Assembly: GCA_024277195.1 (NCBI GenBank)
Contig: JAJRVS010000017.1
Span: 1-59,570 of the forward strand
Direction: 5' to 3'
Source of the DNA: Verrucomicrobiota bacterium
Lineage (GTDB): Bacteria; Verrucomicrobiota; Verrucomicrobiia; Verrucomicrobiales; DEV007
DNA length: 59,570 nt
Below the pieces are notes generated by a model. The model was not told the DNA's origin and ran no database searches. It was given only the letters and a program-made list of their open reading frames with translations. A program made the position numbers and the translations under genes. Of this stretch, positions 12,456-39,449 are shown piece after piece. Positions within the stretch are counted from its first letter, which is position 1. The number at the start of each line of letters is the position of its first letter.

Positions 12456-12734
12456 CACTAAATTTTATGGCAGGTTTCAAAGCCGGTTGAGTTCTATTCT
12501 GAGCGGGCGTTGGTGATGGTTATTATGGAAGAGGTGGATGTAATCACTTCCGAACTTTTCGAACTCGTGATGTTTTGAAATGTTACTATGGAATGCGGTT
12601 GTTCACAGCTAATTAAGATAACCAGCTTTGATGTTGGGTTCTCGTAGTAACCAATCCTCTGATTAGTGGTTGCGGATAATTAGTTCTCAAAGAAAATAAT
12701 TCGCAATAAAAAAAGGAAGGCAGATCTATTGGGC

Positions 12735-12795
12735 TAACGCCTAATACTGGTAAAGCGTGAAAACACGCACCGCAGTTCTAGCTGCATAGTTATTT
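12735..12795 (+). promoter_or_regulatory. Structured 5' leader of the haemagglutinin gene
   Basis: Directly before the start codon lie a perfect GCGTG/CACGC hairpin with an AAAA loop (12755-12768) and a second GCAG/CTGC hairpin (12772-12785). A T-rich stretch follows (about 12790-12799). The order GG(T)AAA, stem with an A-rich tetraloop, then ACCGCA is loosely like the first half of a c-di-GMP-I (GEMM) riboswitch, but key parts do not line up, so no class is assigned. A leader that senses a second messenger would make sense for an adhesin; this is inference. Confidence 0.3.
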
Positions 12796-19406: not shown

Positions 19407-19513
19407 TAAGACAGGATGGCTGCTGCGAAAGAGGAGATGATGAATTCTGCGCTATTGGATAGCATGGAAAATTGGTATCACGGACACTAAAGAGAGTTGC
19501 AACCGTTTTGATT

Positions 19514-21082
19514 ATGAAAAAGTATTGTGAATGGATGGTGTTTGCCATTTTGGTGATCAGTGGAGCGGGTGAAGTTTTTGCAGCAGATATGCTGAAAGAA
19601 ATAAGATTGAATTCGCAACGAGGTCCGTTGGCTATGAAGGACGGGGAGGTGGTTGTGGTGACCCAGAAAGATAGGAGCGCATTTGTGTTTGATGCATGGA
19701 ATGACCCTCCGCCTAAAGGGAGTATGGTGACTTTCAGGTTTAAAATTGAATCTGAAGAAAATAAAGGGATAAGCTATAGGTTTTCAGCTAACTTAAAAGA
19801 TGGAGGGTCTCCGAATTTTTTAAAAATAAAGAAAAATCTTAGAGGGCAAAAAGAGCTTCAGTGTGAGTACTCAGCGGTATGGGACTATGATAAGCAGGAA
19901 TTAAGTAGCGCACCCAAATTCAGTGTGATGCTTTGGAAGAAAGGGGCGTATAAACTTTCATCTTTTGACTATAGCTACAAAAAATATGTTGAAGGGGATA
20001 CGATTTATCCAAATTTAAACAAAACGGTTTCACTAGAGGATGAAAAAATAATGTTTACCGGTACAAAATATGTAGACAGATCATCTACCCACATCGAAGT
20101 GTCCCGGTTCAGAAAGGCGTTATTTGCTTTGTCTGTAGAAGAATTGAATTTTTCGCCTACAATGGCGCGTACGACTAGTGGCATTGTGTTAAAGATTTTT
20201 ACGGACAGTCCTCAGGTAATGCTGTCGTGGGGGGTGGAGGCTCAATATCCAGGAAGTGTTTTGGATTTCGGCCTTGTTCTTGATGGGGTATTACAGGAGA
20301 AGCATTTTGCTGCTCGAGTGACAGAGCGCAAGTCTCCTTTTAGCTTCACTTTCGAAACTAAAGCGGAAAAAGGCCGACCAAGATTGTGTGAAATTACATA
20401 CCCAACACATGCGAATCCGTATCTGTTAGGGGTGAAGCTCAACGAGGGCTATGACCTGAGTAAACCGCCAAGAAGTAATAAGAAGGTTTATGTTGCGATT
20501 GGGGATTCTATAACCCACGGGACAGGGCAAAAAGGTGCTACCCACCGAACTTATGCCTGGCAATTTGCCCATAAAAATAATCTTGAGCTTTTTAACCTCG
20601 CTGTGGGGGGAGGAAAGGTTCCTCTGAAAGTTGGAGAGATGCTAGAGGACTGGACTTATATAAACTTAGTTACCATTCTCATTGGTTTTAATGATTGTAT
20701 GGGAGGTGGGCGCTCGGTTGATGAGTATTATAGAGCTTATACGAAGCTCTTGAGTGAAATTAGTCTAAATCATCCAGAGGCTAAAATCGTATGTATTTCA
20801 CCAACTTATCCGCTTGATGTGAAGTCAAAAGAAACAGGCGTTCATTTGAATGAGTTTAGGAAAGTGGTTGTTAAGGTAGTTGGAGAAAATAATGCAAAGG
20901 GAAATGCGAATGTATATTTTCTTAGAGGTGAGCTGCTAACTTCAAATAATAAAGGGCTTCACTTTAGTCAGGAAGAGGCAGAGAATTTTGCGGAAAAACT
21001 ATCACAAGAGATTGCTTTACGGGCGATTCTTGATTACTCGTTTGTGACTGAGGGGGCTGTTCTTGCCGGCAAAACAGATTGA
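19514..21082 (+). CDS. Exported SGNH/GDSL hydrolase with N-terminal accessory domain
   Basis: About 522 residues with signal peptide MKKYCEWMVFAILVISG. The ATG at 19514 is preferred over an upstream in-frame TTG at 19472 because the signal peptide starts there. Residues about 25-180 are an unrecognised beta-rich part. An SGNH hydrolase domain is in the C-terminal half: block I IGDSITHGTGQ with the nucleophilic Ser near 333, a LAVGGG turn, block III IGFND, and a GLHFS block V. The usual Asp two or three residues before the catalytic His is not obvious (NNKGLHF). Such enzymes remove acetyl or other ester groups from polysaccharides or lipids. The gene overlaps the following sulfatase reading frame in a TTGA, so the two may be co-translated. 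A shorter relative lies at 27869. Confidence 0.85.
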   Translation: MKKYCEWMVFAILVISGAGEVFAADMLKEIRLNSQRGPLAMKDGEVVVVTQKDRSAFVFDAWNDPPPKGSMVTFRFKIESEENKGISYRFSANLKDGGSPNFLKIKKNLRGQKELQCEYSAVWDYDKQELSSAPKFSVMLWKKGAYKLSSFDYSYKKYVEGDTIYPNLNKTVSLEDEKIMFTGTKYVDRSSTHIEVSRFRKALFALSVEELNFSPTMARTTSGIVLKIFTDSPQVMLSWGVEAQYPGSVLDFGLVLDGVLQEKHFAARVTERKSPFSFTFETKAEKGRPRLCEITYPTHANPYLLGVKLNEGYDLSKPPRSNKKVYVAIGDSITHGTGQKGATHRTYAWQFAHKNNLELFNLAVGGGKVPLKVGEMLEDWTYINLVTILIGFNDCMGGGRSVDEYYRAYTKLLSEISLNHPEAKIVCISPTYPLDVKSKETGVHLNEFRKVVVKVVGENNAKGNANVYFLRGELLTSNNKGLHFSQEEAENFAEKLSQEIALRAILDYSFVTEGAVLAGKTD

Positions 21083-24520: not shown

Positions 24521-24573
24521 GCGATTTGAAAGGCAGGTTGAGCAGTGGCGGGACTAATAGTAGTAGGGATGTG
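24521..24573 (+). promoter_or_regulatory. Shared sigma-module leader, copy 1
   Basis: This stretch shares the order AAAGGCAG ... GAG ... GGGACTAA ... TAGT.TAGGG with the leader of the intact ECF sigma gene (29805-29857) and with 38101-38153. The GGCAG box lies about 42 bases before a sigma-like start codon, close to the 40 bases seen in the intact copy. Here it precedes an oxidoreductase-FecR-esterase group. It may be a promoter read by the ECF factor; that part is inference. Confidence 0.5.
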
Positions 24574-24672
24574 ATGGTGTTCACTCGCTACAAATTTGAT
24601 GCTGATGAAAAAAAATATAAAAAAGATAGTTCTCTTGATGCAAATTTTCTCCATTTCTCTCTGCGCAAGTGA
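24574..24672 (+). pseudogene. Relic of the 5' end of an ECF sigma gene
   Basis: A 32-codon frame begins MVFTRYKFDADEKKY, close to LFTRHFADSERAMY at the start of the intact sigma factor at 29858. The DNA around the FTR codons (GTGTTCACTCG) also matches. The frame then loses similarity and stops. It overlaps the start of the oxidoreductase gene in another frame. I read it as the start of a lost sigma gene joined to the oxidoreductase; a conserved short leader peptide is the alternative. Confidence 0.45.
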
Positions 24673-26320
24673 AGAGCAGGAAGTAGATGTGTGTGTGTAT
24701 GGAGCGACTCCTTCAGGGATCGTAGCAGCGATTGCTGTAGCAAGGGAGGGGAAGAGTGTGATAATTGTGGAGCCGAGCCGTTGGGTTGGAGGAATGTCAG
24801 GAGCTGGGATAAAACCAAGCCAGGATTGCCCAAATATCAACATGGTGGGAGGACTCAGTCATAAGCTTATTCTTTCTTTAGGGCTGAGAGGCGATCTGAA
24901 AGGGTTAAGTTTCAGAGAGATCAAGAATAAAAAGAATCAAGTGAGAATCAATCCTCTGCACGTGCGAGAAGATTATTTAAAATTGCTTGAAGATAACAAG
25001 GTGAAGGTCATTTATGATCATCGAATAGCCTCGGTGATCAAAGAGAACCTTGAAATCAAAACAGCCATATTTGATTTTGCCCCTTTTGACTCAACCGCGA
25101 CACCTCCCGAAATTGCTTCAAAAAAGGGTGATCTATCGGTAAAGGCAAAAGTATTTATTGATTGTAGTTATGAAGGAGATTTCCTTCCGCGTTCAGGTGT
25201 GAATTATCGCACAGGGCGTGAGGGAAAAAATGAATTTAATGAGCAGTATGCGGGTGTTCAAGAGCCCTTAAACGCAGTTCAACTAGACCCTTTTGTCACG
25301 CGAGGTGACCCAGCAAGCGGTTTGCTTAAATGGGTAGAGGATGAAGGGGATAAAGCGCTGGGAGATGGAGACCGTTATACGCAGGCGTATAATTATCGCT
25401 ATTACACAACTAATGATCCTCAATTTCGTATTCCTTTTACGAGGCCCGCAGACTATGATGCTCAAGACTATGAATTGATTGGACGTTATGTTCAAACGCT
25501 TGTGGAAAAATACAAAAACCCCTCTCAACGCAAACAGCTTTCGAGTAAATTGACATTCATCTTTCCGGGGAATTTGAATTCTGGGGAACATAATTATATG
25601 CGATGGGGAGGACAACTGTTCTCTCAGGCTCCGTTGGGCGTTAGTTGGAAATATGCTGATGGCGACTATGCAGAAAAGTCAAAAATTTGGAAAATGCATC
25701 AAACTTACCTGAGCGGTATGCATGAATTTTTCAGTACAGACTCTCGTGTTCCTGAATGGCATAGGAAGGAGATACGTGAGCTGGGCAGAGATAAGAGACA
25801 GCACCCGGACACTCTTGGATGGCCCAACCAACTATACATCAGAATAGCGCGTAGGATGGAGGGCAAATATGTGCATACAGAGCAAGATGTTTATGGTAAA
25901 AAGACCGTTGGTGATCCAGTTGGCTTGGCTCAATACGGAATAGATACATACCCATGTCGGCGCATTTGGTTTGAAAAAGAGGGTGAGTACCATGTGGCTC
26001 TTGAGGGGATCATGTTCATAGGGCACGCTAGAGGGCCTACCGACAAGCCTTACGCTATTTCCTACAGGTCGATCGTTCCCAAGGCGTCACAATGTTCAAA
26101 TCTTATTGTGCCAGTTTGTTTTTCTTCTAGCTACATAGGTTATGCTTCAGCACGAATGGAAAATGTTTTCATGGTGCTTGGAGAATCTGCAGGGATTGCT
26201 GCAAATTTGGCTATTGAAAACGAGTGTAAGGTGCAGGAGGTGGCTTACGATGAACTCGAAAAAAAGCTACTTAAATACGGACAGATTATTGACGTTAATG
26301 TTGGCAAATCGAGGAAATAA
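24599..26320 (+). CDS. Exported FAD-dependent oxidoreductase
   Basis: About 573 residues with a signal peptide (hydrophobic stretch near 10-22) followed by a Rossmann FAD-binding motif, VDVCVYGATPSGIVAAIAVA with an E-P pair at the end of the second strand and a GG(M)SG loop. This matches the FAD_oxidored (PF12831-like) family that is common in Planctomycetes and Verrucomicrobiota. The start is uncertain among TTG 24596, ATG 24599 and ATG 24605. The substrate is unknown; relatives lie near sulfatases and glycoside hydrolases and are presumed to act on sugars. The stop is three bases before the next ATG, so it is co-transcribed with the FecR-like gene. The start region overlaps a sigma relic, which suggests a recombination joint there. 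Confidence 0.88.
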   Translation: MLMKKNIKKIVLLMQIFSISLCASEEQEVDVCVYGATPSGIVAAIAVAREGKSVIIVEPSRWVGGMSGAGIKPSQDCPNINMVGGLSHKLILSLGLRGDLKGLSFREIKNKKNQVRINPLHVREDYLKLLEDNKVKVIYDHRIASVIKENLEIKTAIFDFAPFDSTATPPEIASKKGDLSVKAKVFIDCSYEGDFLPRSGVNYRTGREGKNEFNEQYAGVQEPLNAVQLDPFVTRGDPASGLLKWVEDEGDKALGDGDRYTQAYNYRYYTTNDPQFRIPFTRPADYDAQDYELIGRYVQTLVEKYKNPSQRKQLSSKLTFIFPGNLNSGEHNYMRWGGQLFSQAPLGVSWKYADGDYAEKSKIWKMHQTYLSGMHEFFSTDSRVPEWHRKEIRELGRDKRQHPDTLGWPNQLYIRIARRMEGKYVHTEQDVYGKKTVGDPVGLAQYGIDTYPCRRIWFEKEGEYHVALEGIMFIGHARGPTDKPYAISYRSIVPKASQCSNLIVPVCFSSSYIGYASARMENVFMVLGESAGIAANLAIENECKVQEVAYDELEKKLLKYGQIIDVNVGKSRK

Positions 26321-26323
26321 TCG

Positions 26324-27808
26324 ATGGATGGTGATAATGATAGAGAGCTGGGTCTAATTGGTCTGCTGTGTGATGAGTTGATAGATGATCGTCAATTCGA
26401 AGATTTGGATGAAATCCTTTTGCATGATCTATCCTTGCGAGAAGCGTATCGATCATTTGTTGGGATGCATCACGAGCTCGAGCAAGGAGCTTTACTTGCT
26501 AAGGAGTGGGGGGCGGAAGATTGGCAAGCACAACAAAAGCTAGTGCCAACAAGCAGGTGTTTAGTAAACGTTTGTTCGGCAGTCGCACTGCTTGTCTTTG
26601 CGGCAATTGGGTGGATGGCATTCCATTTGGATTTGAAACGAGAGCAGCCTGTTGCGGTATTGACACGGTCTATTGAGGTGGAATGGTCGCACCCAACTCG
26701 AAATAGAGGGAAACTCGGAGAAGCATTGGGAAAAGGCTGGCTGGATATTGACTCAGGTGTTGTAGAGGTGACATTTAGTAGCGGAGCCTCTTTATCTATG
26801 GAGGGACCAGCACGACTAAAAATAGATTCTGCGATGAACTGCTTTAGCGATTTTGGCAAGCTTGTGGTGAGCTGTCCGGAATCGGCGTTTGGATTCACCG
26901 TGCAATTCCGTGGTGGCAAAGTAGTCGATTTGGGCACTGAGTTCGCGCTGAATACAAGAACGGGAGAGGGAACCAATGTGTATGTTCTGGAAGGGGCTGT
27001 GGACGTGATGCTGTTGGATAATGAAAAGAAACTTTTGCAGCAGCTAACCGTGCTTAAGGAAAATGCAGTAAATCTAACTTTTGGAAAGAGTCAGCTTACT
27101 TATCTAAGTTATGATCAGAAAATGTTTGACGGGCTTCGTCGTGAGTCCTTGGTGAAATTACAGCCAATCAAACTCCAATTTGATATCGGGCAAAAGGCCG
27201 GACTATACCGCGGTGTAGATGCTCCGGCTCACAAGGTCGGGGATATGTTTGCCCATGAAAACCAGTGGTCGCAAATCGTAGGGGATCAATCGGGTGCCTT
27301 TGTATTAGCAGATGGTAATATCTGCCCGTTTTCTATCAATGTCGATTATGGTCATGGCAAGGGTCGTATTGATTGGGAAGCATCGCCGGTTACCTACACT
27401 GCAACGGTCTATAAGCGGGCGAAGGGTGTGGCTAATACGGCTCTTTGTTTGGACAATTTACATCATTTTAATGATTTGGGTGTAAGGATTTCGGGCTTAC
27501 CGAAGGGGCGTTACAGGGTGTATGCATTGTGCCGGTCTTTTCGTAGGCCGAAGGCGGCCTACGCAGTGAGTATCGGCACGAACCTCGATCAATTGTCATC
27601 GAACCCTATTGAGGTGGGGGTGATGGGGGAGGCATTAAATCCAAGTTGGGTTTCTGGAGAAACCTATGCTGTGGGTGAAGTGGAAATATCAAAAACGGGA
27701 GATTGGCTCACTATCATAACGAGGTCAGTCGATGATGGGATGATCGGCGAGCCTTATCGAAATAAACTAGCAGTGCTGCTTGGTTTGCAAATTGTAGGTC
27801 TGGAATAA
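26324..27808 (+). CDS. FecR-like transmembrane regulator, copy without its own sigma gene
   Basis: A 494-residue protein with a short cytoplasmic N-terminus (1-80, LIGLLCDELIDDRQFEDLDE), one membrane helix (about 85-103) and a periplasmic FecR domain (about 115-260, with VTFSSGASLSMEGPARL and VVDLGTEFALNTR). A large C-terminal domain (about 280-494) is shared with the paralogue at 30400 but not recognised. The two copies agree at about two thirds of positions by eye over the FecR part. Such proteins act as anti-sigma factors, but no intact sigma gene precedes this copy. It may control the sigma factor at 29858 or be decoupled from control. Confidence 0.85.
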   Translation: MDGDNDRELGLIGLLCDELIDDRQFEDLDEILLHDLSLREAYRSFVGMHHELEQGALLAKEWGAEDWQAQQKLVPTSRCLVNVCSAVALLVFAAIGWMAFHLDLKREQPVAVLTRSIEVEWSHPTRNRGKLGEALGKGWLDIDSGVVEVTFSSGASLSMEGPARLKIDSAMNCFSDFGKLVVSCPESAFGFTVQFRGGKVVDLGTEFALNTRTGEGTNVYVLEGAVDVMLLDNEKKLLQQLTVLKENAVNLTFGKSQLTYLSYDQKMFDGLRRESLVKLQPIKLQFDIGQKAGLYRGVDAPAHKVGDMFAHENQWSQIVGDQSGAFVLADGNICPFSINVDYGHGKGRIDWEASPVTYTATVYKRAKGVANTALCLDNLHHFNDLGVRISGLPKGRYRVYALCRSFRRPKAAYAVSIGTNLDQLSSNPIEVGVMGEALNPSWVSGETYAVGEVEISKTGDWLTIITRSVDDGMIGEPYRNKLAVLLGLQIVGLE

Positions 27809-27868: not shown

Positions 27869-28963
27869 ATGAAAGCGTACTTAATCACAACTATAACTTC
27901 GAGTGTTCTATTTTTTTGGGGAGGGAGTGAAGCTTTTGCTGAAAATATCTCTCCAGATGATCCGGGAATATATTACGAGGGGGTCAATCATATCACGCAA
28001 GAGCCTGAAGGATTTCGCTATAGCCGTTTTACCGAGGAGGTGTATCAACTGAGCCCAGCTCGGGCATCGAAGGGCGAAACGGTGGCAATGAAAAAAGCGC
28101 AGACGACAGCTTGTGTGAAAATGGTTTTTAAAACAAAGAGCCCGGTCATTACGCTTACTTTTGAGACTCCGGAAGGTTATGACCATCGTGGGGCGAATTT
28201 TGGTGTGTATCAAAATGGGCAGTGGTGGAAGTCGATTGATTTTTCCAGTAAAAAAAGAAAAATGGAATGGATGATTGAATCGATAAACCCTGGCGAAGCA
28301 GTGAGATATACCATTGCATTTCCAAGTTGGTCGAATCCGTTTTTGCAAGGCATGAAGCTTGAGCAGGGTTATCAACTTGATGCCATTACCCCATCAAAAA
28401 AGAAGGTCTACGTAGCGTATGGTGATTCGGTATCGCACGGCACGGGGCAGAAGTCGGCGAGTTATCTTACGTGGCCATATCAGCTTGCCGAGAAGCTTGA
28501 TTATGAAGTTCATAGTTTAGCTGTAGGCGGGGCCTCAATCAAGCTGCCAGTGGTCGAGAAGATGTTTAAGGAGTTTGAAAAAATAGACCTGATTACGATC
28601 TACATAGGTATCAATGATAGCGGACGTAAGTCATTGCAACAGTTTGGTGAGGAGTATGATCAGATGTTGTCATTGATAAGAAAATCTCATCCGGCAACAA
28701 AAATTTTCTGTATAACTATCCACTCGATCCCAGAGGACAAGAGTAGTCGTTTGACTAAGATCAAAATGATAGATTTCAGGAAGCCTGTAGCTGAGGTGGT
28801 TGAGCTACGGCAAAAAAAGGGGGATGGAAATTTATTTTTGATCGATGGCCGCTCGCTCACCACTCTCGAGGATGCGATGAATCCGGGTAATGTGCATTTA
28901 AGCGTGGATGGCGCCAAACATTGGTCGGAGAAGCTCTATCCGCAGATCAAAGATGAACTGTAG
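27869..28963 (+). CDS. Exported SGNH/GDSL hydrolase
   Basis: The 364-residue product has a signal peptide (1-25), a beta-rich accessory part and a SGNH domain. Block I is YGDSVSHGTGQ (Ser near 188), followed by the LAVGGA turn, block III IYIGINDS, and block V NVHLSVDGAKHW with the catalytic His near 343. It resembles the C-terminal half of the protein at 19514 and probably removes ester groups from a polysaccharide. It follows the FecR-like gene after 60 bases and is likely part of that transcript. Confidence 0.87.
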   Translation: MKAYLITTITSSVLFFWGGSEAFAENISPDDPGIYYEGVNHITQEPEGFRYSRFTEEVYQLSPARASKGETVAMKKAQTTACVKMVFKTKSPVITLTFETPEGYDHRGANFGVYQNGQWWKSIDFSSKKRKMEWMIESINPGEAVRYTIAFPSWSNPFLQGMKLEQGYQLDAITPSKKKVYVAYGDSVSHGTGQKSASYLTWPYQLAEKLDYEVHSLAVGGASIKLPVVEKMFKEFEKIDLITIYIGINDSGRKSLQQFGEEYDQMLSLIRKSHPATKIFCITIHSIPEDKSSRLTKIKMIDFRKPVAEVVELRQKKGDGNLFLIDGRSLTTLEDAMNPGNVHLSVDGAKHWSEKLYPQIKDEL

Positions 28964-29804: not shown

Positions 29805-29857
29805 TTGAAAAAATAAAGGCAGAATCGATGAGTCCGAGACTAAGTTAGTGTAAGGGC
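29805..29857 (+). promoter_or_regulatory. Shared sigma-module leader, copy 2 (intact module)
   Basis: The bases before the ECF sigma start contain AAAAATAAAGGCAGAAT, then GAG..CC.GAGACTAAG and a weak purine stretch before ATG. Matching runs occur at 24521-24573 and 38101-38153 with the same order and nearly the same spacing. As this is the only copy with a full sigma gene, it is the best candidate for an auto-regulated promoter of this ECF factor. Confidence 0.5.
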
Positions 29858-30403
29858 ATGTCGTCAGAACCACACAACAATCAAAAGCAGGTGCTGTTCA
29901 CTCGTCACTTCGCGGATAGCGAACGTGCGATGTATGGTTTTGCCTACTCTTTGGTGCCGCTACGAGCTGATGCGGATGATATTGTTCAAGAGGCGCTGGT
30001 TTTGCTGTGGAAGCATTTTGATCAATATGATCCGGAGCGGCCATTTCTTCCCTGGGCGAATCGATTTGTTTATCGTCAGGTGCAGACATATCGACGTAAA
30101 CAAGCGACTCGGGCGAAGTATTTTTTCAGTGATGAGACCATCGAGCGTCTCGCTGCCGAGATGCCAGCTTTTCAGGAAAGGGATCAGGCGATGTCGCGAG
30201 CTCTGGAGCTATGTCTTGAGGGTTTAGGGGGAAAGCAGCGAGCATTGATCGAGCAACGTTATGTGGCTAAAGAGTCGTTGTGCAAATTGGCGGATGAAAC
30301 CGGACGCAGTGCCAATTCTTTGTATAAGACTTTGCAAAGAATACGAGTGGGCTTGTATCGTTGTATCAGTCAACGCGTTTTAGATGAAGGGTTTACCGTA
30401 TGA
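29858..30403 (+). CDS. ECF sigma factor, Rhodopirellula/Verrucomicrobium family
   Basis: The 181-residue protein has sigma region 2 (about 20-90, with ADADDIVQEALVLLWKHFDQ) and region 4 (about 120-175, with LCKLADETGRSANSLYKTLQ as a helix-turn-helix). It lacks regions 1 and 3, so it belongs to the extracytoplasmic function group. The YDPERPFLPWANRFVYRQV stretch is typical of the Planctomycete/Verrucomicrobium subfamily (TIGR02989-like). Its stop overlaps the FecR-like start in ATGA, the usual coupling of sigma and anti-sigma. It is the only intact sigma gene in the window and may drive the neighbouring esterase operons. Confidence 0.93.
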   Translation: MSSEPHNNQKQVLFTRHFADSERAMYGFAYSLVPLRADADDIVQEALVLLWKHFDQYDPERPFLPWANRFVYRQVQTYRRKQATRAKYFFSDETIERLAAEMPAFQERDQAMSRALELCLEGLGGKQRALIEQRYVAKESLCKLADETGRSANSLYKTLQRIRVGLYRCISQRVLDEGFTV

Positions 30404-31899
30404 AGGAAGACTTTAAGCGAGTTTTGGAACTGACCGGGCTTCTTTGCGATGAGCTGATTGATGATGAGCAGTTTGTTGAGTTGGATAAACTTCTCGCGGA
30501 GGATGTTAACGCAAGGCGGGTGTACACTTCTTTTTTAGAGGTTCACCATGGTCTGGCTCCCGGTGGGTCGCTTGGACAGGGGCAAAATGAAAAAAGTGAG
30601 GAGCGATTGGTGAAAGATATGCCCAAGGCGAGGAGCTGGGTTCGTTTTTGCACAACAGCAGCAGCAGCGCTGATCGTGGTAGGCTTGGTGTTTTTCAGTC
30701 TGGAATCAAGTCAAGCACCTCCAATCGCTGTGTTGACGCGTGTGATCGACGTCAAGTGGTCTCATCCCACTCGCTTCCGAGGCGAGATCGGGGAGGCTTT
30801 GGAGCGTGGCTGGTTGAAAATTGACGCAGGCGTGGTGGAGTTGGTGTTCAGTAGCGGGGCTTCAGTGTCGTTGGAAGGTCCAGCACAGTTACGGATTGAC
30901 TCGCCGTTAAAGTGTTTTAGCGACTCTGGGATGCTGGTGGCGAATTGTCCGGAGTCGGCATACGGCTTTACTATCGAATTTCGTGGGGGAGAGGTTGTGG
31001 ATCTTGGAACGGAGTTTGCGTTGAACACACGAGTTGAGGGCGAAACGAATGTTCATGTTTTGAATGGCAAGGTGAACGTAGCCCTGTTGGATGACACCCG
31101 TGAGGTCATCGAAAGACAAGAACTGACTGAGAATACGGCGGTGGTTTTGAATTCGAGTGAAGGAGAAATTGCGCCTATGGCTTATAACCAATCGATGTTT
31201 GATGAGTTGCGTCGAGATTCTTTGATCAAGTCACAACCAGTCAAACTTCAATTTGATATTGGTCGTAGGGCAGGGCTATACCATGGGACGGACGCCCCTG
31301 GGCACAGTGGTGGCGACCTGTTCGCACATGAAAACGTTTGGAATCAAATCATTGGTGATCAGGCGGGTTCTTTTGTGATGGCTGATGGCAATCTTTGCCC
31401 ATTTCCGATAAAGGTGGACTACGGACAAGGGGACGGCGAAATCAATTGGCAGGCAGCTCCTGTGGATCGATTGGGTAAAGTCTATAAGCGAGCGCGCGGG
31501 GTTGCTAACTCAGCTCTTAGTTTGGATAATCTATTCTGCCACGACGAATTGGGGATGAGGGTGTCGGGTTTGCCCAAGGGCAGGTATCGAGTGTATGTGT
31601 TGTGTCGATCTTTTCGTAGGCAGAAGGCTACTTATAACGTTAGCATTGGGGCGAACCTGAGGAAGGCGTGGTCAGAGCCGATGAAGGTGCTTCCGATGAA
31701 AGATGAGGGTGTGCCAGAGTGGGAGCAGGGCTATACCTATGCCATGGGCGAGGTCGAAATAAAAAACTCAAAAGATTGGCTTACTATCATAACAGAATCA
31801 ATAGATGACTACACATTGAAAAATATAGACCGTATGAAGAAGGCGCCTCGCAATAATCGGTCGACTTTGTTGGGGTTGCAGATCGTGGAGCTAGATTAG
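30400..31899 (+). CDS. FecR-like anti-sigma regulator paired with the ECF sigma factor
   Basis: A 499-residue protein built like the copy at 26324: cytoplasmic N-terminus with LTGLLCDELIDDEQFVELDK, a membrane helix at about 86-103, FecR domain (about 115-255, VFSSGASVSLEGPAQL, VVDLGTEFALNTR), then an unrecognised C-terminal domain ending LLGLQIVELD. In the family the N-terminus binds the sigma factor and the periplasmic part senses a signal. A four-base overlap with the sigma gene supports a working pair. The last residues match a relic found before 38315. Confidence 0.9.
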   Translation: MKEDFKRVLELTGLLCDELIDDEQFVELDKLLAEDVNARRVYTSFLEVHHGLAPGGSLGQGQNEKSEERLVKDMPKARSWVRFCTTAAAALIVVGLVFFSLESSQAPPIAVLTRVIDVKWSHPTRFRGEIGEALERGWLKIDAGVVELVFSSGASVSLEGPAQLRIDSPLKCFSDSGMLVANCPESAYGFTIEFRGGEVVDLGTEFALNTRVEGETNVHVLNGKVNVALLDDTREVIERQELTENTAVVLNSSEGEIAPMAYNQSMFDELRRDSLIKSQPVKLQFDIGRRAGLYHGTDAPGHSGGDLFAHENVWNQIIGDQAGSFVMADGNLCPFPIKVDYGQGDGEINWQAAPVDRLGKVYKRARGVANSALSLDNLFCHDELGMRVSGLPKGRYRVYVLCRSFRRQKATYNVSIGANLRKAWSEPMKVLPMKDEGVPEWEQGYTYAMGEVEIKNSKDWLTIITESIDDYTLKNIDRMKKAPRNNRSTLLGLQIVELD

Positions 31900-32032: not shown

Positions 32033-32746
32033 TTATTCTCCCTTCCAGAATTTAATATAATCAATGTGAACTTCGCCCTCTTGTTTGCCAAAAAGGTTGA
32101 TCAGCATCGGTTTGTCTCGCAGATAGGATGGATGTTTTCCGCGAAGGGTCGGGCCGCCTTCGATTTGAAAGATCAATTCATCGCCACGAATTTCAGCCAG
32201 CATGTGGCACCATGTGTCATCAGGTAATACCCAGGGATCCTCTTTGAGCACTAATTTATCGTGGTCCGCAAGCATGAGGGTTTTATTAACTGCGAATTGA
32301 ATTCTGGCACCGTGAACGCGGAATTCGATGACGCGGTGGTATCGACTGTCTCGATCATTGCCGCCTACCATTTTAAATTTAATCTCCATAATCGCTGGAT
32401 CAGGAATTTTTTTAATATGAAGTCTGGCAAGGTCTCCCATGTGGCTACGTCCAGCCCGTTCGCCTTTGCCGGCAGCAATTTGTTCTTGGATGATTTTTTT
32501 CCTAGATTCGTTACTAGAGGGTTGCCCTACGGCTTTTCCATTTTTAACACTCCATCTGGAATGTTGAACTTCTTGCCACCTGTTTTTGTCCAAGGGTTTG
32601 CCGTCATCAAAGTCACGAGCATAAACGAGTTCACCCTTTTTAAGGAGCAGGGGATCGAGAGCTATTGCATTGTTCATTTGGCAGATGGACAACGATATGA
32701 GCGCAATCGAAGTGGACATGTTTTTCAATAAACTTGGCTTCTTCAT
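32033..32746 (-). CDS. Exported LamG/DUF1080-like beta-sandwich protein
   Basis: A 237-residue protein with a signal peptide (1-30) and the look of a concanavalin-type sandwich: an opening F-D-D-G segment, W..V.NGKAVG, alternating strands and an HIDYIKFWKGE end. This resembles the DUF1080/3-keto-disaccharide hydrolase group only in outline; no active-site set is certain. It is the last gene of the second DUF1592/DUF1552 operon (gap of 42 bases), so it probably binds or trims the same sugar. Confidence 0.65.
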   Translation of the reverse strand: MKKPSLLKNMSTSIALISLSICQMNNAIALDPLLLKKGELVYARDFDDGKPLDKNRWQEVQHSRWSVKNGKAVGQPSSNESRKKIIQEQIAAGKGERAGRSHMGDLARLHIKKIPDPAIMEIKFKMVGGNDRDSRYHRVIEFRVHGARIQFAVNKTLMLADHDKLVLKEDPWVLPDDTWCHMLAEIRGDELIFQIEGGPTLRGKHPSYLRDKPMLINLFGKQEGEVHIDYIKFWKGE

Positions 32747-32788
32747 GTGATTGTGTGGTTGGGAATAGGAATGAGTGAGTGCATGGGT

Positions 32789-34084
32789 TTAGATAAATAA
32801 ATTTGAAAATCCTCCTGTGCTGTCAGCAAACTTTTCAACGGGGCATCCTGCAAAATGCAGCATGCTTAGCCATAGATCAGAGAGGCGACTTTCGTTTTGA
32901 CGATAGGCGAGATGTTGCCCTTGTTGAATTTTCCCTGCACGACCTCCAGCAAGTAAAATAGGTACGTTTTTACGCATGTGACCAGTGCGAATGTCGCTAC
33001 CCATGACAATCAGGGTATTGTCTAGAAGAGTGCTTCCATCTACTTCAATCACTTTATTAAGTTTGTCGATTAGAGCTGCGAAGAGCTGACAAAGTTTTTT
33101 ATCTCGCCATAACAGTGCTTGGTATTCTTTGGTCTCGGTAGAGCCGTAATGGGTCATGCGGTGAGCGGCGACGGAGTCACCAGTTTCTTGGGCAAACTCG
33201 TCTAGCAAGCTGGCAAGGGGAAGCTGATAGGTGAAAACTCGAGTCGTGTCGGACTGAAGTGCGGCGGTCATGAGATCAAACATCATGAGGGCGCCAGGCG
33301 TGCCAGTGAGTCCGCTTGCAGGAGCTGCAAAAGGGGCTTTAGGTTTAGGGGAATTCATCCACTGTTCTTCACGAGCAAGATTTTTCTCTATTTTCCGGAT
33401 GAGACTGAAGTATTGTTCGGTTTTAGCTTTATCGTTTGTATTGAGTTGATTGGATAGGGACTTTGCGTCCAAAAGAGTTGCATCAAGAATGCTACGCTCT
33501 CGTCGAATTTTGTTTCGAGTGCTATCGATGGAGCTAGATTGGCTAGCAAAAAGTCGATGAAAAATCTTGAGAGGATCCGCTTCTCCGTAGAGGCTTTCTC
33601 CGTTAGCATCCCAAGCGAGAGAAAGGCCCTTACCTTTACCAGCGGTATCGCTTGTGGTGAGTTCGATTGAAGGGTAGCGATTAGTTTTTCCAATGAACTG
33701 AGCAGCCACTTGATCGCAGGATATCGAATTGTGAAATCCTTGTCCGAGAATAGGCTGGGGATCGCTGCTGGTCAAAAAAGTGGTTGCGCCCCAATGAGGA
33801 TTTACCCGCAGAGATGCGATATTGGAGAGATTTGATAGGAAGGAAAAATGCTCACGATGTTTGGTGAGAGCTTCCATGGCTTTGGGCAGTGCATAGGATT
33901 TGCCCGTGTCTGCAACATTAGGGAAAAATTCTTTGGAAACACCAAATCCCGTGTTCAGAAAAACAAGGCGTCGCGGTGGCACGGGTGCGGCTACGGTAGC
34001 AGCAAAAAGCGAGGACATATAGGGGAGTGTTATTACAGAACTGGCGCCTGCAAGTATTTGACGACGAGAAAATTGTGTGTTCAT
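32789..34084 (-). CDS. DUF1552 family exported protein, second copy
   Basis: The 431-residue protein has a Tat-like leader (SRRQILAGASSVITLPYMSS) and DUF1552 landmarks: FLNTGFGVSKEFFP near residue 43, GQGFHNSISCDQVAAQFIG, MFDLMTAALQSDTTRVFTYQ and NTLIVMGSDIRTGHMRKNVP. It follows the DUF1592 gene with a four-base overlap. In the first operon the order is the reverse (DUF1552 first), so the two sets are not a simple recent duplication. Function is unproven as for other members. Confidence 0.92.
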   Translation of the reverse strand: MNTQFSRRQILAGASSVITLPYMSSLFAATVAAPVPPRRLVFLNTGFGVSKEFFPNVADTGKSYALPKAMEALTKHREHFSFLSNLSNIASLRVNPHWGATTFLTSSDPQPILGQGFHNSISCDQVAAQFIGKTNRYPSIELTTSDTAGKGKGLSLAWDANGESLYGEADPLKIFHRLFASQSSSIDSTRNKIRRERSILDATLLDAKSLSNQLNTNDKAKTEQYFSLIRKIEKNLAREEQWMNSPKPKAPFAAPASGLTGTPGALMMFDLMTAALQSDTTRVFTYQLPLASLLDEFAQETGDSVAAHRMTHYGSTETKEYQALLWRDKKLCQLFAALIDKLNKVIEVDGSTLLDNTLIVMGSDIRTGHMRKNVPILLAGGRAGKIQQGQHLAYRQNESRLSDLWLSMLHFAGCPVEKFADSTGGFSNLFI

Positions 34085-36783
34085 TGGCTTTGAAAGGGTT
34101 GACTGGAAACTATGATCTGAACAAGGTCACGCATGCGATAGTCGTTCACTTGCCACTTTTTGTGAAGTTCGGAGACCCATTGGTTATCTGAGAATCCTAG
34201 GGGCCTTCCCAGGGCGTAAATAAGCATGGAACGTAGGATGTGATTGGTCACAACGTCTTCCTTGGAAGAGAGGTATTGTTTGACCCCTTCGTAACCGTTT
34301 AAAGTTTCACCACGAAGCTCACTGCGGGAGTTGATTTCAGCGAGGTCAGTATTCTTTCTCGAGCCTTTCACCTTGCGTAGTAAAACCATGGTTTCAACGG
34401 AGGTGTTATCGCGCCAGTCGCCAATAGTATCGAAATTTTCCAAGGCAAACCCGATAGGGTCGAAGCGTTGGTGGCAGGAAGCGCATTGTGCGGATTGTGT
34501 GTGAGCCCTGAGTCGCTCGCGGATGGGCATTGCGGGGCTTCCATCAAATTGGAGCTGGGGTACATTTGGAGGAGGTGGCGGCGGTGGTGAACCTAGCATG
34601 CGGGAGAGGACAAAGTTACCACGTAAGACAGGTGAGGTTCTTTCCCCGCTTGAGGTTAGAGTTAGTATGGCGCCTTGACCAAGCAGCCCGCCGCGGGGAG
34701 AATCAGTTGGAATAGCTACGCGCTTAAACCCGTCGATATGAGGTTCCCCTAATTTATAAAAATCAACAAGCAAGCCGTTGGCCATAGTGAAATCTGAGTC
34801 GATGAAATTTCGAGCGCTGAGATTCTCTCGAATAAGTTCGCGTGAGAAGCTTAGTGTTTCCTCTTTGAACGCCGTGCGAATTTTTTCATTAAACTTTTTA
34901 TAGCCTTTATGGACTACGATCATTTGTAGGCGATCTAGCCCTAACCACTGAGTGGTGAAGGAGTCAATGAAAGATGAAGCTCGGGGAGCTGCTAACATGC
35001 GTTCTACTTCCGACCTCAGAACGCGAGGTTCCGCAAGCTTGTTTTGATTGGCAAGCTTATTGAGTTGAGTATCGGGCGGAGCGCTCCAAAGGAAATAAGA
35101 TAGGCGTTTGGCTAGGTCGAGAGCGCTCAAGTTTTTATCTGAAGAAGATTCTGCATGTAGCAGAAACCTAGGAGACGAGAGAGCTACTGATAGAGCTTCC
35201 CTTAGAGCGGCTATAAATTCAGGATCTATGGTTGTGGTGTCGTTGTTTCGTTTTTTACGAGTAAGCATTCTAATGCGTTTTTTGTCGCGAGGGCTAATGG
35301 CTTTTCGCGCGGGTTCAGGAGTCGTGCCGATTTCGCGATAGGAGAGATAAATTTGATGAAGTGCAGTGATGTAATTATCTGCTGGAGCTTGTCCGCGGAA
35401 AACGTGACGGGTAAATTTGTCGATAATTTTCCTAGCGTAAACTGACTCGGCTTCGGGTTGAGTTGGGGGCTTACTAGTAAAGAAAGTGAAAGCCTGATCA
35501 GATGAGGGGTTTTTTAATGGCCCTACGATATTAATTGAATCTAGCCAGAGGAAGCAGGTCTTTCCTGTGGGGGTGGAGTTCTGAGGGTAGAGGGGGAGGG
35601 GCAGTTTGTTTCCCTTTTCTAAAGCTGTTTTGAGTTTTGCTTCGGCCTGTTTGATTGTGTGCAGGTAATGGCTCTCATGGCCCCCCCCTTTTATGGAAGG
35701 CTCAAGCACTTTGATGACGATCGTATCCAGAGTGTCGGTTGAGCGATTGAGTTCAAACTCAAAAGTTTGTGTTTCAGGTGATGTGTTTTCGATCTTAAAG
35801 ATTCCAATATCCTTTGGCGGTGTGCTGCCGCCATCTTCCCCAATCAGAGATACCTGTGCGATATACGGTTTGTCTGGGGAGGGGTGTGTGAGAGCAGCAC
35901 GTATCGTAAGATGATAGGTGCCGATGTTATCGTTAGGAAATGGCGTACTGAATTCTTGAGGGGAGCCATTTTCATCGCCAACAAAAACATAACCTGTTTT
36001 CGTAGCGGGAATAGTTTGATACAGTGCGCTGACTACATATTTTTTTGCGGTTCTATCAAGGCGGCGGCTATTTTCTTGCCCCTTGGAGATAAGGCGAGAT
36101 TCTGCTTCGAGAGATTTATTGCGAATTTTGAGCTGCCTGGAAATATATTTGTTGTGCTCCGTTTCAGCTTGGATCAAGAACGTTTCAGCCCCTTGCTTCC
36201 CGAGTGCACGAGAAAATGCCTTGTCTAGTGCCTGCTTGCCTATGGCGCGATAGCTGTTGAAAAGCTGTGCGGACATTTCTTGAACAGAGCCAACGCGATC
36301 AAACCCTTCGAAGGTGTTGTCGTTAGGAAGGCGAGAGATGTCCACGGGAACGCCCAGAAGGCTCTTAATCGAGTTGTGATATTCCCGTCGATTAAGCTGC
36401 CGCATAGTGGCTTGAGTTTTATCTGTAAGTTGTTTCCCTGCCTTGTAGAGACGGTTCGTTAGGTGATCAATGGCTGCAATCATTGCCGCCCGCGGAGGTT
36501 GATCTTCATCCTCGGGAGGCATTTCAGACATGTTGAGAGCATCCAATACTTCTTGCCAGGTTTCGGCGGTTCTTTCGTTGGAAAGTGAGGTGGAGAGCTG
36601 ATCCAAGCGTAGATCCCCCTTGCTCTTTTTAGACCCGTGGCAATCGATGCAGTATTGTTTCAAGAAAGGTGTGATGGATTCGACAGAAACGGGCGCTGTC
36701 TCGGCGTGCACAGGATAGCTGCAAGTTATACAGAGAAAGAAACATGCCCCTAGAACAGTGGGGCTTGAGATGAGGCTGCTCAT
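34081..36783 (-). CDS. DUF1592/DUF1588/DUF1585 c-type cytochrome-like protein, second copy
   Basis: About 900 residues. The start at 36783 is chosen because a clear signal peptide begins there (MSSLISSPTVLGACFFLCIT); a GTG at 36846 overlapping the upstream stop is possible but adds 21 odd residues. A haem motif CIDCHG follows the signal, then the DUF1587 segment (QLNRREYHNSIKSLLG), DUF1592 with YFLWSAPPDTQL, DUF1588 with RGGLLGQGAILTLTSSGERT and CASCHQRFDPIGFALENFD, and a DUF1585-like end. Longer than its relative at 4005 by about 70 residues, mainly in the middle. It is coupled to the DUF1552 gene downstream. Confidence 0.92.
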   Translation of the reverse strand: MSSLISSPTVLGACFFLCITCSYPVHAETAPVSVESITPFLKQYCIDCHGSKKSKGDLRLDQLSTSLSNERTAETWQEVLDALNMSEMPPEDEDQPPRAAMIAAIDHLTNRLYKAGKQLTDKTQATMRQLNRREYHNSIKSLLGVPVDISRLPNDNTFEGFDRVGSVQEMSAQLFNSYRAIGKQALDKAFSRALGKQGAETFLIQAETEHNKYISRQLKIRNKSLEAESRLISKGQENSRRLDRTAKKYVVSALYQTIPATKTGYVFVGDENGSPQEFSTPFPNDNIGTYHLTIRAALTHPSPDKPYIAQVSLIGEDGGSTPPKDIGIFKIENTSPETQTFEFELNRSTDTLDTIVIKVLEPSIKGGGHESHYLHTIKQAEAKLKTALEKGNKLPLPLYPQNSTPTGKTCFLWLDSINIVGPLKNPSSDQAFTFFTSKPPTQPEAESVYARKIIDKFTRHVFRGQAPADNYITALHQIYLSYREIGTTPEPARKAISPRDKKRIRMLTRKKRNNDTTTIDPEFIAALREALSVALSSPRFLLHAESSSDKNLSALDLAKRLSYFLWSAPPDTQLNKLANQNKLAEPRVLRSEVERMLAAPRASSFIDSFTTQWLGLDRLQMIVVHKGYKKFNEKIRTAFKEETLSFSRELIRENLSARNFIDSDFTMANGLLVDFYKLGEPHIDGFKRVAIPTDSPRGGLLGQGAILTLTSSGERTSPVLRGNFVLSRMLGSPPPPPPPNVPQLQFDGSPAMPIRERLRAHTQSAQCASCHQRFDPIGFALENFDTIGDWRDNTSVETMVLLRKVKGSRKNTDLAEINSRSELRGETLNGYEGVKQYLSSKEDVVTNHILRSMLIYALGRPLGFSDNQWVSELHKKWQVNDYRMRDLVQIIVSSQPFQSQ

Positions 36784-36842
36784 AGATGTTAGTATATGAA
36801 AAGGAGGTGCTAAACTTTCCCGGTTGGGAACAAGGTGGAGGG

Positions 36843-37751
36843 TCACTTAATAGCCGTATTTTTCGTTACGGAAATCTTAATGGGGGTTGCCTTGAGGGTA
36901 AAATCGTCAAAAGCCACACCGGTGTTTGATGCAACGATGCCTGCCAGAGTTTTATTTTCGTGGGCTATGCCAGCTGATTTCAACTCAGCAATTTTTTCAC
37001 CGTCTATGAACAGGGTCATAACATCCTCTTTGGTCTGTAGTGCTAGTTGATACCACTTCTCCTTTTCGAGGGTAATTGACTGCCGAAATTCTTTTTCTTT
37101 GAGCAACTTCTTGGTCGCTTCATCGAGACCATTCCCGGACTGCTTCATTTTAAAAATCTCATTCTTGAAACCACCTGTTTTGCTATCTAACAGAACGATG
37201 TTCTTAAGATTGACCCCTACGCGACAAATATGCCCTGCGTGCGAGCCTTTGTATTGTTTGTCACCAAATTTGACCATGAAGCCCTTTGCTTCAGGGCCAG
37301 AAAATTTGAATTTTACGTTGATGTGCATGTCCTTCCTGCCTTCGAACCGAACAGAGGAGCCTCCAGGATGACTGGAGTCGGGTTCCTTGGTAACATATAA
37401 AACACCCTCTTTCATCATGCTCGCATCATTATGGTGCCATTGTTCATCAAAGCTTTCTCCGGAAAAATCATCTTCGAATATCGTCTCCATGTCAGAGGGG
37501 TTTTCTGTCTCTGATTTTCCTTCATTGCGGTTTGCCTGCCACTTGGCTACAAAAATCTGATCCTCTTGAGACAATTTATCCATGGGCAATTCAAATACAC
37601 GGCCCTTAAAGCGGATTTTAAGTTTTTGATCTCTCAAGTCGAGCAATTCTGCTTTGATCTTATTCCCTTCTGAATTCGTCAAATCTCGAAACTCGCGCGC
37701 GTGGATCGGTTGCAGAATTAGTAGGGTTAAGATCGTCAGTAATAGTTTCAT
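36843..37751 (-). CDS. Exported protein with SHD1-like and LamG-like domains
   Basis: About 302 residues from the preferred Met (MKLLLTILTLLILQPIHA signal peptide); six more residues are possible upstream. The mature protein begins with an SHD1-like beta domain (about 20-70: FRDLTNSEGNKIKAELLDL, FELPMDKLSQEDQIFV), a small domain frequent in Verrucomicrobiota and Planctomycetes exported proteins. A LamG/concanavalin-like sandwich follows (about 85-295, with FEDDFSGESFDEQWHHND and LFIDGEKIAELKS). It heads the operon. A binding role is inferred; no catalytic set is seen. Confidence 0.78.
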   Translation of the reverse strand: MKLLLTILTLLILQPIHAREFRDLTNSEGNKIKAELLDLRDQKLKIRFKGRVFELPMDKLSQEDQIFVAKWQANRNEGKSETENPSDMETIFEDDFSGESFDEQWHHNDASMMKEGVLYVTKEPDSSHPGGSSVRFEGRKDMHINVKFKFSGPEAKGFMVKFGDKQYKGSHAGHICRVGVNLKNIVLLDSKTGGFKNEIFKMKQSGNGLDEATKKLLKEKEFRQSITLEKEKWYQLALQTKEDVMTLFIDGEKIAELKSAGIAHENKTLAGIVASNTGVAFDDFTLKATPIKISVTKNTAIK

Positions 37752-38100
37752 GGTTGAGCTTTCAGTCATTTTTAGGTGTTGTTATTTTTCCAGACAAAAC
37801 GGGAAGCGTATCGGTGTACATTGAGCGGGATTAAGTTGAAACACTTATGAAATAATTGGAAAAAAGTAATGCTTGTATATCTATTAGACGTTTGTGAGCC
37901 TAATCTGCCGAATTATTCGAATTTGAGGACATAATCCTGGCGATATTAATTCCTATAGCTAAAGCGGGAGGGGCGCGGTGACATTGAATCATGCTGGAAC
38001 GGGGTTTGCCTAGATGATAAGTCAGGTGGTTATGCTCGCCAGGATGCGTCGAATTACTGCGGATCGGCTGAAGTAAATTATTAGTGGCGATTCTGCTTAA
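37752..38100. other. Intergenic stretch, no gene seen
   Basis: About 350 bases between the minus-strand operon start and the sigma-module remnant. No open frame of useful length or clear RNA is visible. It probably holds the promoter of the SHD1-DUF1592-DUF1552 operon, but I cannot place the boxes. Confidence 0.5.
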
Positions 38101-38153
38101 ATTGTAAAAATATAGGCAGAATTGAGGTCTGAGAGTCTAAGTTTATGAGAAGG
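38101..38153 (+). promoter_or_regulatory. Shared sigma-module leader, copy 3
   Basis: TTGTAAAAATATAGGCAGAA and the later GAGAGTCTAAGTTTATGAGA match the leader of the intact sigma gene at 29805-29857 almost base for base over its first half. The GGCAG box is 39 bases before the ATG at 38154, as in the intact copy. It now precedes a remnant and a sialate esterase gene. Confidence 0.5.
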
Positions 38154-38315
38154 ATGTTCACTACGACTATATTATTCGCTGCAGAGCCTGAGAGAGGGGT
38201 TCACTTTACACGTAATCTTGGGGAGTTGAAAAACCAGAGGCTTGACGCTATAAAATAAACTTTATGTAAGAATGGCTCAAATCTGATTGGATTTCAGCTT
38301 GTAGAATTAGCATAA
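38145..38315 (+). pseudogene. Collapsed ECF sigma/FecR module
   Basis: A short frame after the leader reads ...RGVHFTRNLGELKNQRL... and stops at 38258; the FTR box sits where the intact sigma has LFTRHF. In the same frame 16 codons before the stop at 38315 read NGSNLIGFQLVELA, closely matching the FecR-like C-terminus STLLGLQIVELD at 31899. So the two ends of a sigma-FecR module remain while everything between is gone. The reading is by eye and the joint cannot be placed exactly. Confidence 0.5.
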
Positions 38316-38327
38316 ACAAATTGTAAA

Positions 38328-39449
38328 ATGTTGCCATATACGAATCTAATCTTGAGAACATTATGCGTCCTGTTTGTAAGTCAGGTCACCCTATTTGCTA
38401 AAGTGGAAATTGCCCAAATTTTCTCGAATGGCATGGTGATCCAGCGAGACCAAAAGGTTCCCGTATGGGGGTGGGCATCTCCTGGTGAGCGGGTGACCGT
38501 AAAGTTTGCGGGACAAGAGCTAGGGACAAAAGCCGGCAGTGAGGGTAACTGGCGCGTAGATTTAAAGCCGATCGCCATGAACAAAAAAGGCATAGTCCTT
38601 CAGGTCATCGGTAAAAAAAAGAAAATAGAAGACTTGGAACTCACCGATTCGCGAACTTATCCTGGGGGTTGTTTTAACGGAATGTTGCACCCTTTGTTTC
38701 CCTTTGCTGTTACGGGTGTGGTCTGGTATCAAGGGGAGGCTAATATGAGGAGAGCTTATCAATATAGGAAGTTACTGCCTATGATGATCGCTGAGTGGCG
38801 CAGGCGCTTCGAGCAAGCTGATATGAAGTTCTACGCGGTTCAGCTACCTGATCTTTTTAAGGACACTGCCATTGGGCGCAGTAATGTTGCTGAATTAAGG
38901 GAGGCGCAGGCTATGACGGTGGAGATGGATGAGAATGCGGAGCTTGCGGTGATTATTGATTCAGATCAGGACGGCAACCTTCACCCGAAAAACAAACAGC
39001 TGCCTGCTGAGCGACTTGCGTTGATCGCGCTTGCTAAAGATTACCAAAAAGCTATTGAATATAGTGGGCCCAAGTTCAAAAAAATGGAGATTGGCAAAGG
39101 CAAGGTGCGGCTATTTTTTTCCCACCAAGGCGCGGGACTTGTGAGTGGGTCTCGTGTGAGCGCGGGGAGTTGTGAGATCAAGCTGTTATCGGAACCTTTG
39201 AATAATTTTATCGTTGCGGGTGCTGACAAGAAGTTCTACCAAGCGGAGGCAAGAATTGATGGAGATAGCGTGATATTGAGCAGCGATCTGGTGAAGCAGC
39301 CCGTGAGCGTGCGGTATGCTTGGAGCCAGCATCCTGAGCAAGTGAACTTTTACAACAAGGAAGGCTTACCAGGAGTTCCGTTTCGCGCTGATGATTGGCC
39401 GTGTACTACGAGAAACATCGTCAAGGCTATGATTCTATTGGTGCATTGA
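38328..39449 (+). CDS. Sialate O-acetylesterase-like protein, internally deleted
   Basis: The 373-residue product has a signal peptide, an N-terminal Ig-like domain (FSNGMVIQRDQKVPVWGWA, VTVKFAGQ) and the C-terminal half of a sialate O-acetylesterase: CFNGMLHPLFPFAVTGVVWY, QGEANM, LREAQAM and the His-bearing LHPKNKQLPAERLALIALA. What is missing is the block between, which in relatives begins GEVWLCSGQSNM and carries the catalytic serine. The joint lies near residues 100-113 (38625-38670), and well over 100 residues appear lost in frame. The protein is probably inactive or has a different role. It follows the collapsed sigma module by 13 bases. Confidence 0.8.
   Translation: MLPYTNLILRTLCVLFVSQVTLFAKVEIAQIFSNGMVIQRDQKVPVWGWASPGERVTVKFAGQELGTKAGSEGNWRVDLKPIAMNKKGIVLQVIGKKKKIEDLELTDSRTYPGGCFNGMLHPLFPFAVTGVVWYQGEANMRRAYQYRKLLPMMIAEWRRRFEQADMKFYAVQLPDLFKDTAIGRSNVAELREAQAMTVEMDENAELAVIIDSDQDGNLHPKNKQLPAERLALIALAKDYQKAIEYSGPKFKKMEIGKGKVRLFFSHQGAGLVSGSRVSAGSCEIKLLSEPLNNFIVAGADKKFYQAEARIDGDSVILSSDLVKQPVSVRYAWSQHPEQVNFYNKEGLPGVPFRADDWPCTTRNIVKAMILLVH

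What the first reader, a model, noticed from the sequence alone, without database searches (positions are those of the whole stretch)
24521..27808. FecR-like regulator whose sigma gene appears replaced by an oxidoreductase
The module leader and first codons of a sigma gene (MVFTRYKFDADE) run straight into an FAD oxidoreductase gene, which is followed three bases later by an intact FecR-like gene. In the intact module sigma and FecR overlap. Here a redox enzyme takes the sigma position, leaving an anti-sigma without its own partner.
Basis: partly seen in the sequence, partly recalled or inferred. Interest (0 to 1): 0.52.

Follow-up and report, generated by a model that had tools for sequence, protein, structure and literature searches.

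The report
Anti-sigma gene whose sigma was lost
In this bacterium a membrane sensor that normally sits next to the gene switch it controls has lost that switch, and an enzyme gene now fills the gap while the sensor has stayed intact, so it may be working on a sister switch nearby.

Summary
An FAD_oxidored (PF12831) gene, best start 24605, is followed after 3 bases by an intact 494-codon FecR-like gene (A, 26324-27808). A sister module at 29858-31899 has a TIGR02989 sigma gene overlapping FecR B (A/B 55-56% identical).

Comparison supports sigma loss. Both full-length FecR orthologues found outside this genome follow an overlapping sigma gene. Of 68 distinct FecR-like loci checked, 66 have a sigma gene upstream, one is cut by a contig end, and one is A. 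None of 29 other FAD relatives has a FecR neighbour. The genome holds no second close copy of sigma B.

The leader match alone is modest (about 0.003-0.02 in the better tests, non-significant in plain local alignment). It is reinforced by a bipartite motif, WAGGCAG-N17-CTAA, at 24530, 29816 and 38113. The third site belongs to a newly found module reduced to a stump (38113-38315). A fourth copy precedes the gene at 12804.

FecR A keeps its N-terminal anti-sigma-like region (16 of 19 sites kept, against 16 of 20 in B). Best reading: a sigma-less duplicate kept as a second sensor for sigma B. That functional step is inferred; slow decay is the main rival.

The parts
24530..24557 (+). bipartite motif WAGGCAG-N17-CTAA in the leader of module A
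   Evidence: same spacing as in B and C
24574..24609 (+). probable stump of the lost sigma gene (MVFTRYKFDADE); lies in a 32-codon ORF ending 24672
   Evidence: 5/1000 shuffles, 11/858 real controls
24605..26320 (+). FAD-dependent oxidoreductase, PF12831, with signal-peptide-like N-terminus, in the sigma position
   Evidence: E 3.1e-79, called from the TTG at 24596; start chosen by reading the sequence
26324..27808 (+). FecR-like gene A: N-terminal anti-sigma-like region about 1-60, hydrophobic helix about 79-101, FecR-like region 109-240, C-terminal domain 241-494
29816..29843 (+). same motif in the leader of the intact module B
29858..30403 (+). sigma B, ECF-type, TIGR02989 family
30400..31899 (+). 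FecR-like gene B, partner of sigma B by position
38113..38140 (+). same motif in the leader of stump module C
38154..38258 (+). sigma-start remnant of module C (MFTTTILFAAEPERGVHFTRN...)
38274..38315 (+). FecR-tail remnant of module C (GSNLIGFQLVELA, stop)
   Evidence: 0 of 1950 control stretches reach it
12717..12744 (+). fourth copy of the motif, 59 nt before the gene at 12804; not used to define the motif

Best explanation
A sigma-FecR module of the TIGR02989/FecR-like kind was duplicated in this lineage. In copy A the sigma gene was lost down to its leader and first 9-12 codons, and an FAD oxidoreductase gene came to lie between the old leader and the FecR gene, forming a two-gene unit. 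FecR A was kept whole. Most likely it works as a second membrane sensor and anti-sigma (or co-activator) for sigma B, encoded 2 kb downstream, whose module leader shares the same bipartite motif. Shown: gene order, ancestral sigma-FecR state, absence of another close sigma, intactness of FecR A. Inferred: co-transcription, that the motif is a promoter element, binding to sigma B, and any link with the oxidoreductase's activity.
For: Orthologous FecR genes follow an overlapping sigma. 66 of 68 distinct FecR-like loci have an upstream sigma, 1 is cut by a contig end, 1 is A. A and B are sister genes (support 80/81), G056+L074 the sister pair (100/99). Leader, peptide and motif tests. The A leader matches sigma leaders better than FAD-orthologue upstreams. 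No FecR beside other FAD relatives. The next sigma in the genome is 33% identical to sigma B. N-terminal region of A: 16 of 19 sites fixed in B, G056 and L074 are kept, against 16 of 20 for B by the mirror count. pS about 0.8, pN 0.29 between A and B. FAD GC (0.434) and codon use fit the neighbours.
Against: Constraint on A may date from before the sigma loss, whose age is unknown. A has the longer branch (0.51 vs 0.33) and more unique changes (36 vs 23). The leader match is not significant in plain local alignment. Anti-sigma domains are reported to be usually specific to their own sigma (PMC7406223, passages read). No interaction or transcription data. One genome only.
Confidence: 0.48

Rival explanations
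1. FecR A is a leftover: the sigma loss was recent, and the gene is intact only because decay has not yet set in, as module C already decayed to a stump.
For: Module C on the same contig is reduced to leader, sigma start and FecR tail. The gene next to C has lost its middle in frame. A evolves faster than B.
Against: 494 codons without a stop; the anti-sigma-like region is as well kept as in B; tidy 3-base spacing to the FAD gene.
Confidence: 0.3
2. FecR A works with another sigma of the genome, or as a sensor tied to the oxidoreductase, not with sigma B.
For: The genome has 20 sigma matches; for 6 of them no FecR-like gene was found in the locus, and a seventh is cut by a contig end.
Against: Those 6 are far from sigma B (22-33% identity over short spans), while FecR A is far closer to FecR B than to any other FecR in the genome (56% vs 37% or less).
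Confidence: 0.12
3. No replacement took place: a FecR copy landed behind an FAD gene without its sigma, and the leader resemblance is chance or a shared promoter only.
For: The leader match is not significant in plain local alignment.
Against: Anchored leader, peptide and motif tests; the start codon before FTR lies 16 nt after the motif, as in a module start (read).
Confidence: 0.08
4. Assembly artefact of a fragmented draft genome (422 contigs).
For: The genome is fragmented.
Against: GC and codon use of the FAD gene fit the neighbours; open frames run up to both junctions.
Confidence: 0.04

Closest known systems
Sigma-FecR modules of Verrucomicrobiota with TIGR02989-type sigma factors (e.g. 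L074, L075)
   Same: FecR-like gene with N-terminal helical region, membrane helix, FecR-like region and outer domain; sister module B has the sigma
   Different: sigma gene missing in A, PF12831 gene in its place
E. coli FecI-FecR / Leptospira LIC12757-LIC12756 (literature)
   Same: FecR-like N-terminal domain acts on an ECF sigma factor (PMC13118517 abstract read; PMC7406223 passages read)
   Different: there the sigma is encoded beside the FecR gene (recalled); Pfam FecR score of A is below the cut-off
Orphan anti-sigma factors
   Same: anti-sigma gene without adjacent sigma; PMC7406223 (passage read) proposes regulation by orphan anti-sigmas for some ECFs
   Different: here the steps of becoming an orphan are still visible beside an intact and a deleted sister module
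PF12831 FAD_oxidored enzymes of related genomes
   Same: full-length family match, 50-56% identical relatives
   Different: relatives are not beside FecR-like genes; the two relatives read in full have an EF-hand-like tail that this one lacks

Membership tests
FecR-like regulator | Pfam FecR PF04773 at its gathering score | tested here: not met
   16.8 bits vs 24; FecR B 16.3 and L074 21.3 also fall below
FecR-like regulator | homology over full length to genes that follow an ECF sigma | tested here: met
   56% to FecR B, 52% to L074, 47-48% to G056/L075
FecR-like regulator | N-terminal helices, membrane helix, outer beta region | tested here: inconclusive
   predicted order fits, but the model is poor (pLDDT 43)
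FecR-like regulator | adjacent cognate sigma gene | tested here: not met
   only the FAD gene lies upstream
FecR-like regulator | binding to a sigma factor | not testable with these tools
   needs two-hybrid or pull-down
TIGR02989 sigma (sigma B) | NCBIfam score above cut-off | tested here: met
   140.9 vs 124.55
PF12831 FAD_oxidored | Pfam score above gathering over the whole profile | tested here: met
   267.7 vs 27, profile 1-416 of 416

The most novel reading that the evidence does not exclude
WAGGCAG-N17-CTAA is the promoter element read by sigma B. The FAD-FecR A unit and the large gene at 12804 are then its targets, and FecR A is a sigma-less second receptor that feeds a different outside signal into, or feedback-inhibits, the one remaining sigma: one sigma factor with two (once three) membrane sensors, built by deleting sigma genes from duplicated modules.
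Probability: 0.22. Interest if true: 0.6.

Novelty: new variant of a known kind. Interest (0 to 1): 0.42.

Why it matters
Sigma/anti-sigma pairs are usually one to one, and the searches made here found little in print on how orphan anti-sigma genes arise or stay useful. Here three copies of one module lie within 14 kb in three states (intact, sigma lost with FecR kept, nearly deleted), so the idea that a duplicated sensor can be re-wired to a sister sigma can be tested directly.

Tried and rejected
Tried without gain: AlphaFold of FecR A gave pLDDT 43, so no fold search was made. PDB sequence search with the FAD protein: 0 hits. DNA search of the own genome with the B leader found only itself; the looser pattern AGGCAGN{7,9}GTN{2,3}GRGA gave 8 hits, 3 of them A, B and C, against 9 for the control. 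Sigma-70 promoter and terminator scan of the A leader: none. Paper searches with FecR + ECF sigma + Verrucomicrobia and FecR + ECF + Verrucomicrob + anti-sigma: 0 papers; 'orphan anti-sigma' + ECF: 1 paper, in whose main text the phrase was not found; five orphan-FecR phrases: 1 listing, not about orphans by its title.

Rejected: the idea that the leader belongs to the FAD gene; that FAD-FecR is an old order; a foreign composition of the FAD gene. The first count of 66 of 71 missed sigma genes in L018, L031 and L033 and included 3 duplicate loci; one search replaces it (68 distinct, 66 with sigma). The loci are top-scoring matches, not a random sample. The seven genomic motif hits compare with 9 for the reversed control, so the motif is not enriched genome-wide; only its clustering on this contig (4 of 7, three of them used to define it) is notable. 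Site D aligned to B better than most controls (42 of 1874 reach it) but not to C or A (217 and 1110 of 1874).

Full report
What is there. In the window an FAD_oxidored gene (PF12831, E 3.1e-79) is followed after three bases by a complete FecR-like gene A (26324-27808). Two kb further lies a complete sister module: sigma B (29858-30403, TIGR02989, 140.9 bits against a cut-off of 124.55) overlapping FecR B by four bases. FecR A and B are 55-56% identical over their full length; the other 11 FecR-like matches in the genome align only in part, at 37% or less. Pfam FecR is reached only below its gathering score by A, B and L074, so 'FecR-like' rests on homology within this set.

Ancestral state. 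Of 95 related genomes, 75 have some FecR-like match, but outside this genome only one (G056) has a full-length orthologue among the listed matches, at 48%. A scan of genome contigs gave 57 pattern stretches and 8 loci, of which two are full length: L074 (52%) and L075 (by length and genes the same contig as in G056). In 387 genomes of the phylum, 16 including this one passed 1e-25, and none outside this genome matched over the full length. In G056/L075 and in L074 the FecR gene directly follows an overlapping sigma gene. In a survey of 68 distinct FecR-like loci, 66 have a sigma gene upstream on the same strand; one is cut by a contig end, and one is A. A tree of 13 proteins puts A with B (80/81) and G056 with L074 (100/99). 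So A comes from a sigma-FecR module.

Where the sigma went. The own genome holds 20 sigma matches; the best after sigma B itself is 33% identical, so no moved copy of A's sigma is seen (genome 95.55% complete). Upstream of the FAD gene, MVFTRYKFDADE at 24574 resembles the sigma starts (LFTRH, QFTRH), with 5 of 1000 shuffles and 11 of 858 real stretches as good; a shorter 8-residue cut is not significant (148 of 1000, 205 of 858). The 60-nt leader before it resembles B's (2 of 1000, 5 of 1862), but longer cuts and plain local alignments are not significant against shuffles. The A leader scores 35 and 41 against B and C, and 14-26 against the regions upstream of 13 FAD orthologues.

A third module. 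The leader of B matches a site at 38100-38224 far beyond chance (0 of 1500 shuffles). There the reading frame from 38154 runs MFTTTILFAAEPERGVHFTRN..., and a FecR tail GSNLIGFQLVELA follows at 38274 (0 of 1950 control stretches as good). This is a sigma-FecR module deleted to a stump. The esterase gene behind it (38328) lacks about 147 residues in the middle compared with L075: its residues 9-93 match 7-91, and 91-354 match 239-492.

A shared motif. All three leaders carry WAGGCAG-N17-CTAA with the same spacing, 13-16 nt before the start codon. A consensus from B and C alone predicts 0.017 sites as good as A's in the A stretch. The genome has seven such sites, four of them on this contig; the fourth (12717) was not used to define the motif and lies 59 nt before the gene at 12804. 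The reversed control pattern gives nine hits in the genome, so the motif is not enriched overall. That it is a promoter read by sigma B is a guess.

The FAD gene. Relatives at 50-56% occur in other genera of the family and order. None of 29 other FAD loci (1.5 kb flanks where the contig allows) or 7 wider stretches has a FecR-like neighbour; one (L070) has a weak sigma match (7e-5). GC and codon use fit the window. The two relatives read in full carry an EF-hand-like tail that this one lacks (the tail name is my reading).

Is FecR A still used? It has no stop in 494 codons. Between A and B, pS is about 0.8 (saturated) and pN 0.29; in the first 60 residues pN is 0.32, close to 0.33 between the two sigma-bearing orthologues. 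Of sites fixed in the other three, A keeps 16 of 19 there, and B keeps 16 of 20 by the mirror count. Elsewhere A changed more (36 unique changes against 23 overall). This fits continued use but cannot date the sigma loss.

Mechanism. In Leptospira the N-terminal domain of a FecR-like protein binds and inhibits its ECF sigma (PMC13118517, abstract read). In E. coli the N-terminal 59 residues of FecR are needed for sigma activity (PMC7406223, passage read). On that basis FecR A most likely acts on sigma B. Against this, anti-sigma domains are reported to be usually specific (PMC7406223), and nothing here shows binding. Simple decay is the main rival.

Verdict. What is new is the comparative evidence for the ancestral state, the survey, the third stump module and the shared motif. 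It is a variant of a known kind, of moderate interest, testable with ordinary bench work.

Noticed in passing
window 38113-38315: A third sigma-FecR module deleted to leader, sigma start and FecR tail.
   Followed up: yes
window 38328-39449: Esterase-like (SASA) gene that lacks about 147 residues in the middle compared with L075, where the GQSNM block lies; an in-frame deletion.
   Followed up: partly
window 12717-12744: Fourth copy of WAGGCAG-N17-CTAA, 59 nt before a 2200-codon gene with a filamentous-haemagglutinin N-terminal match (TIGR01901).
   Followed up: partly
window 19472-21082 and 27869-28963: Two GDSL-type esterase genes, 32% identical over 342 residues, on either side of the FAD-FecR unit.
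   Followed up: no
window 32033-36846: Genes of the DUF1552, PSD/PSCyt and similar kinds, related to the genes behind the sigma-FecR modules of L074 and L075 but on the opposite strand here.
   Followed up: partly
window 24574-24672: A 32-codon ORF starting with the sigma stump overlaps the FAD signal-peptide region in another frame and could couple translation.
   Followed up: no
L006 (G000:C261) and L115 (G000:C183): A FecR-like gene and a sigma gene, each cut at a contig end; they may be halves of one module.
   Followed up: no
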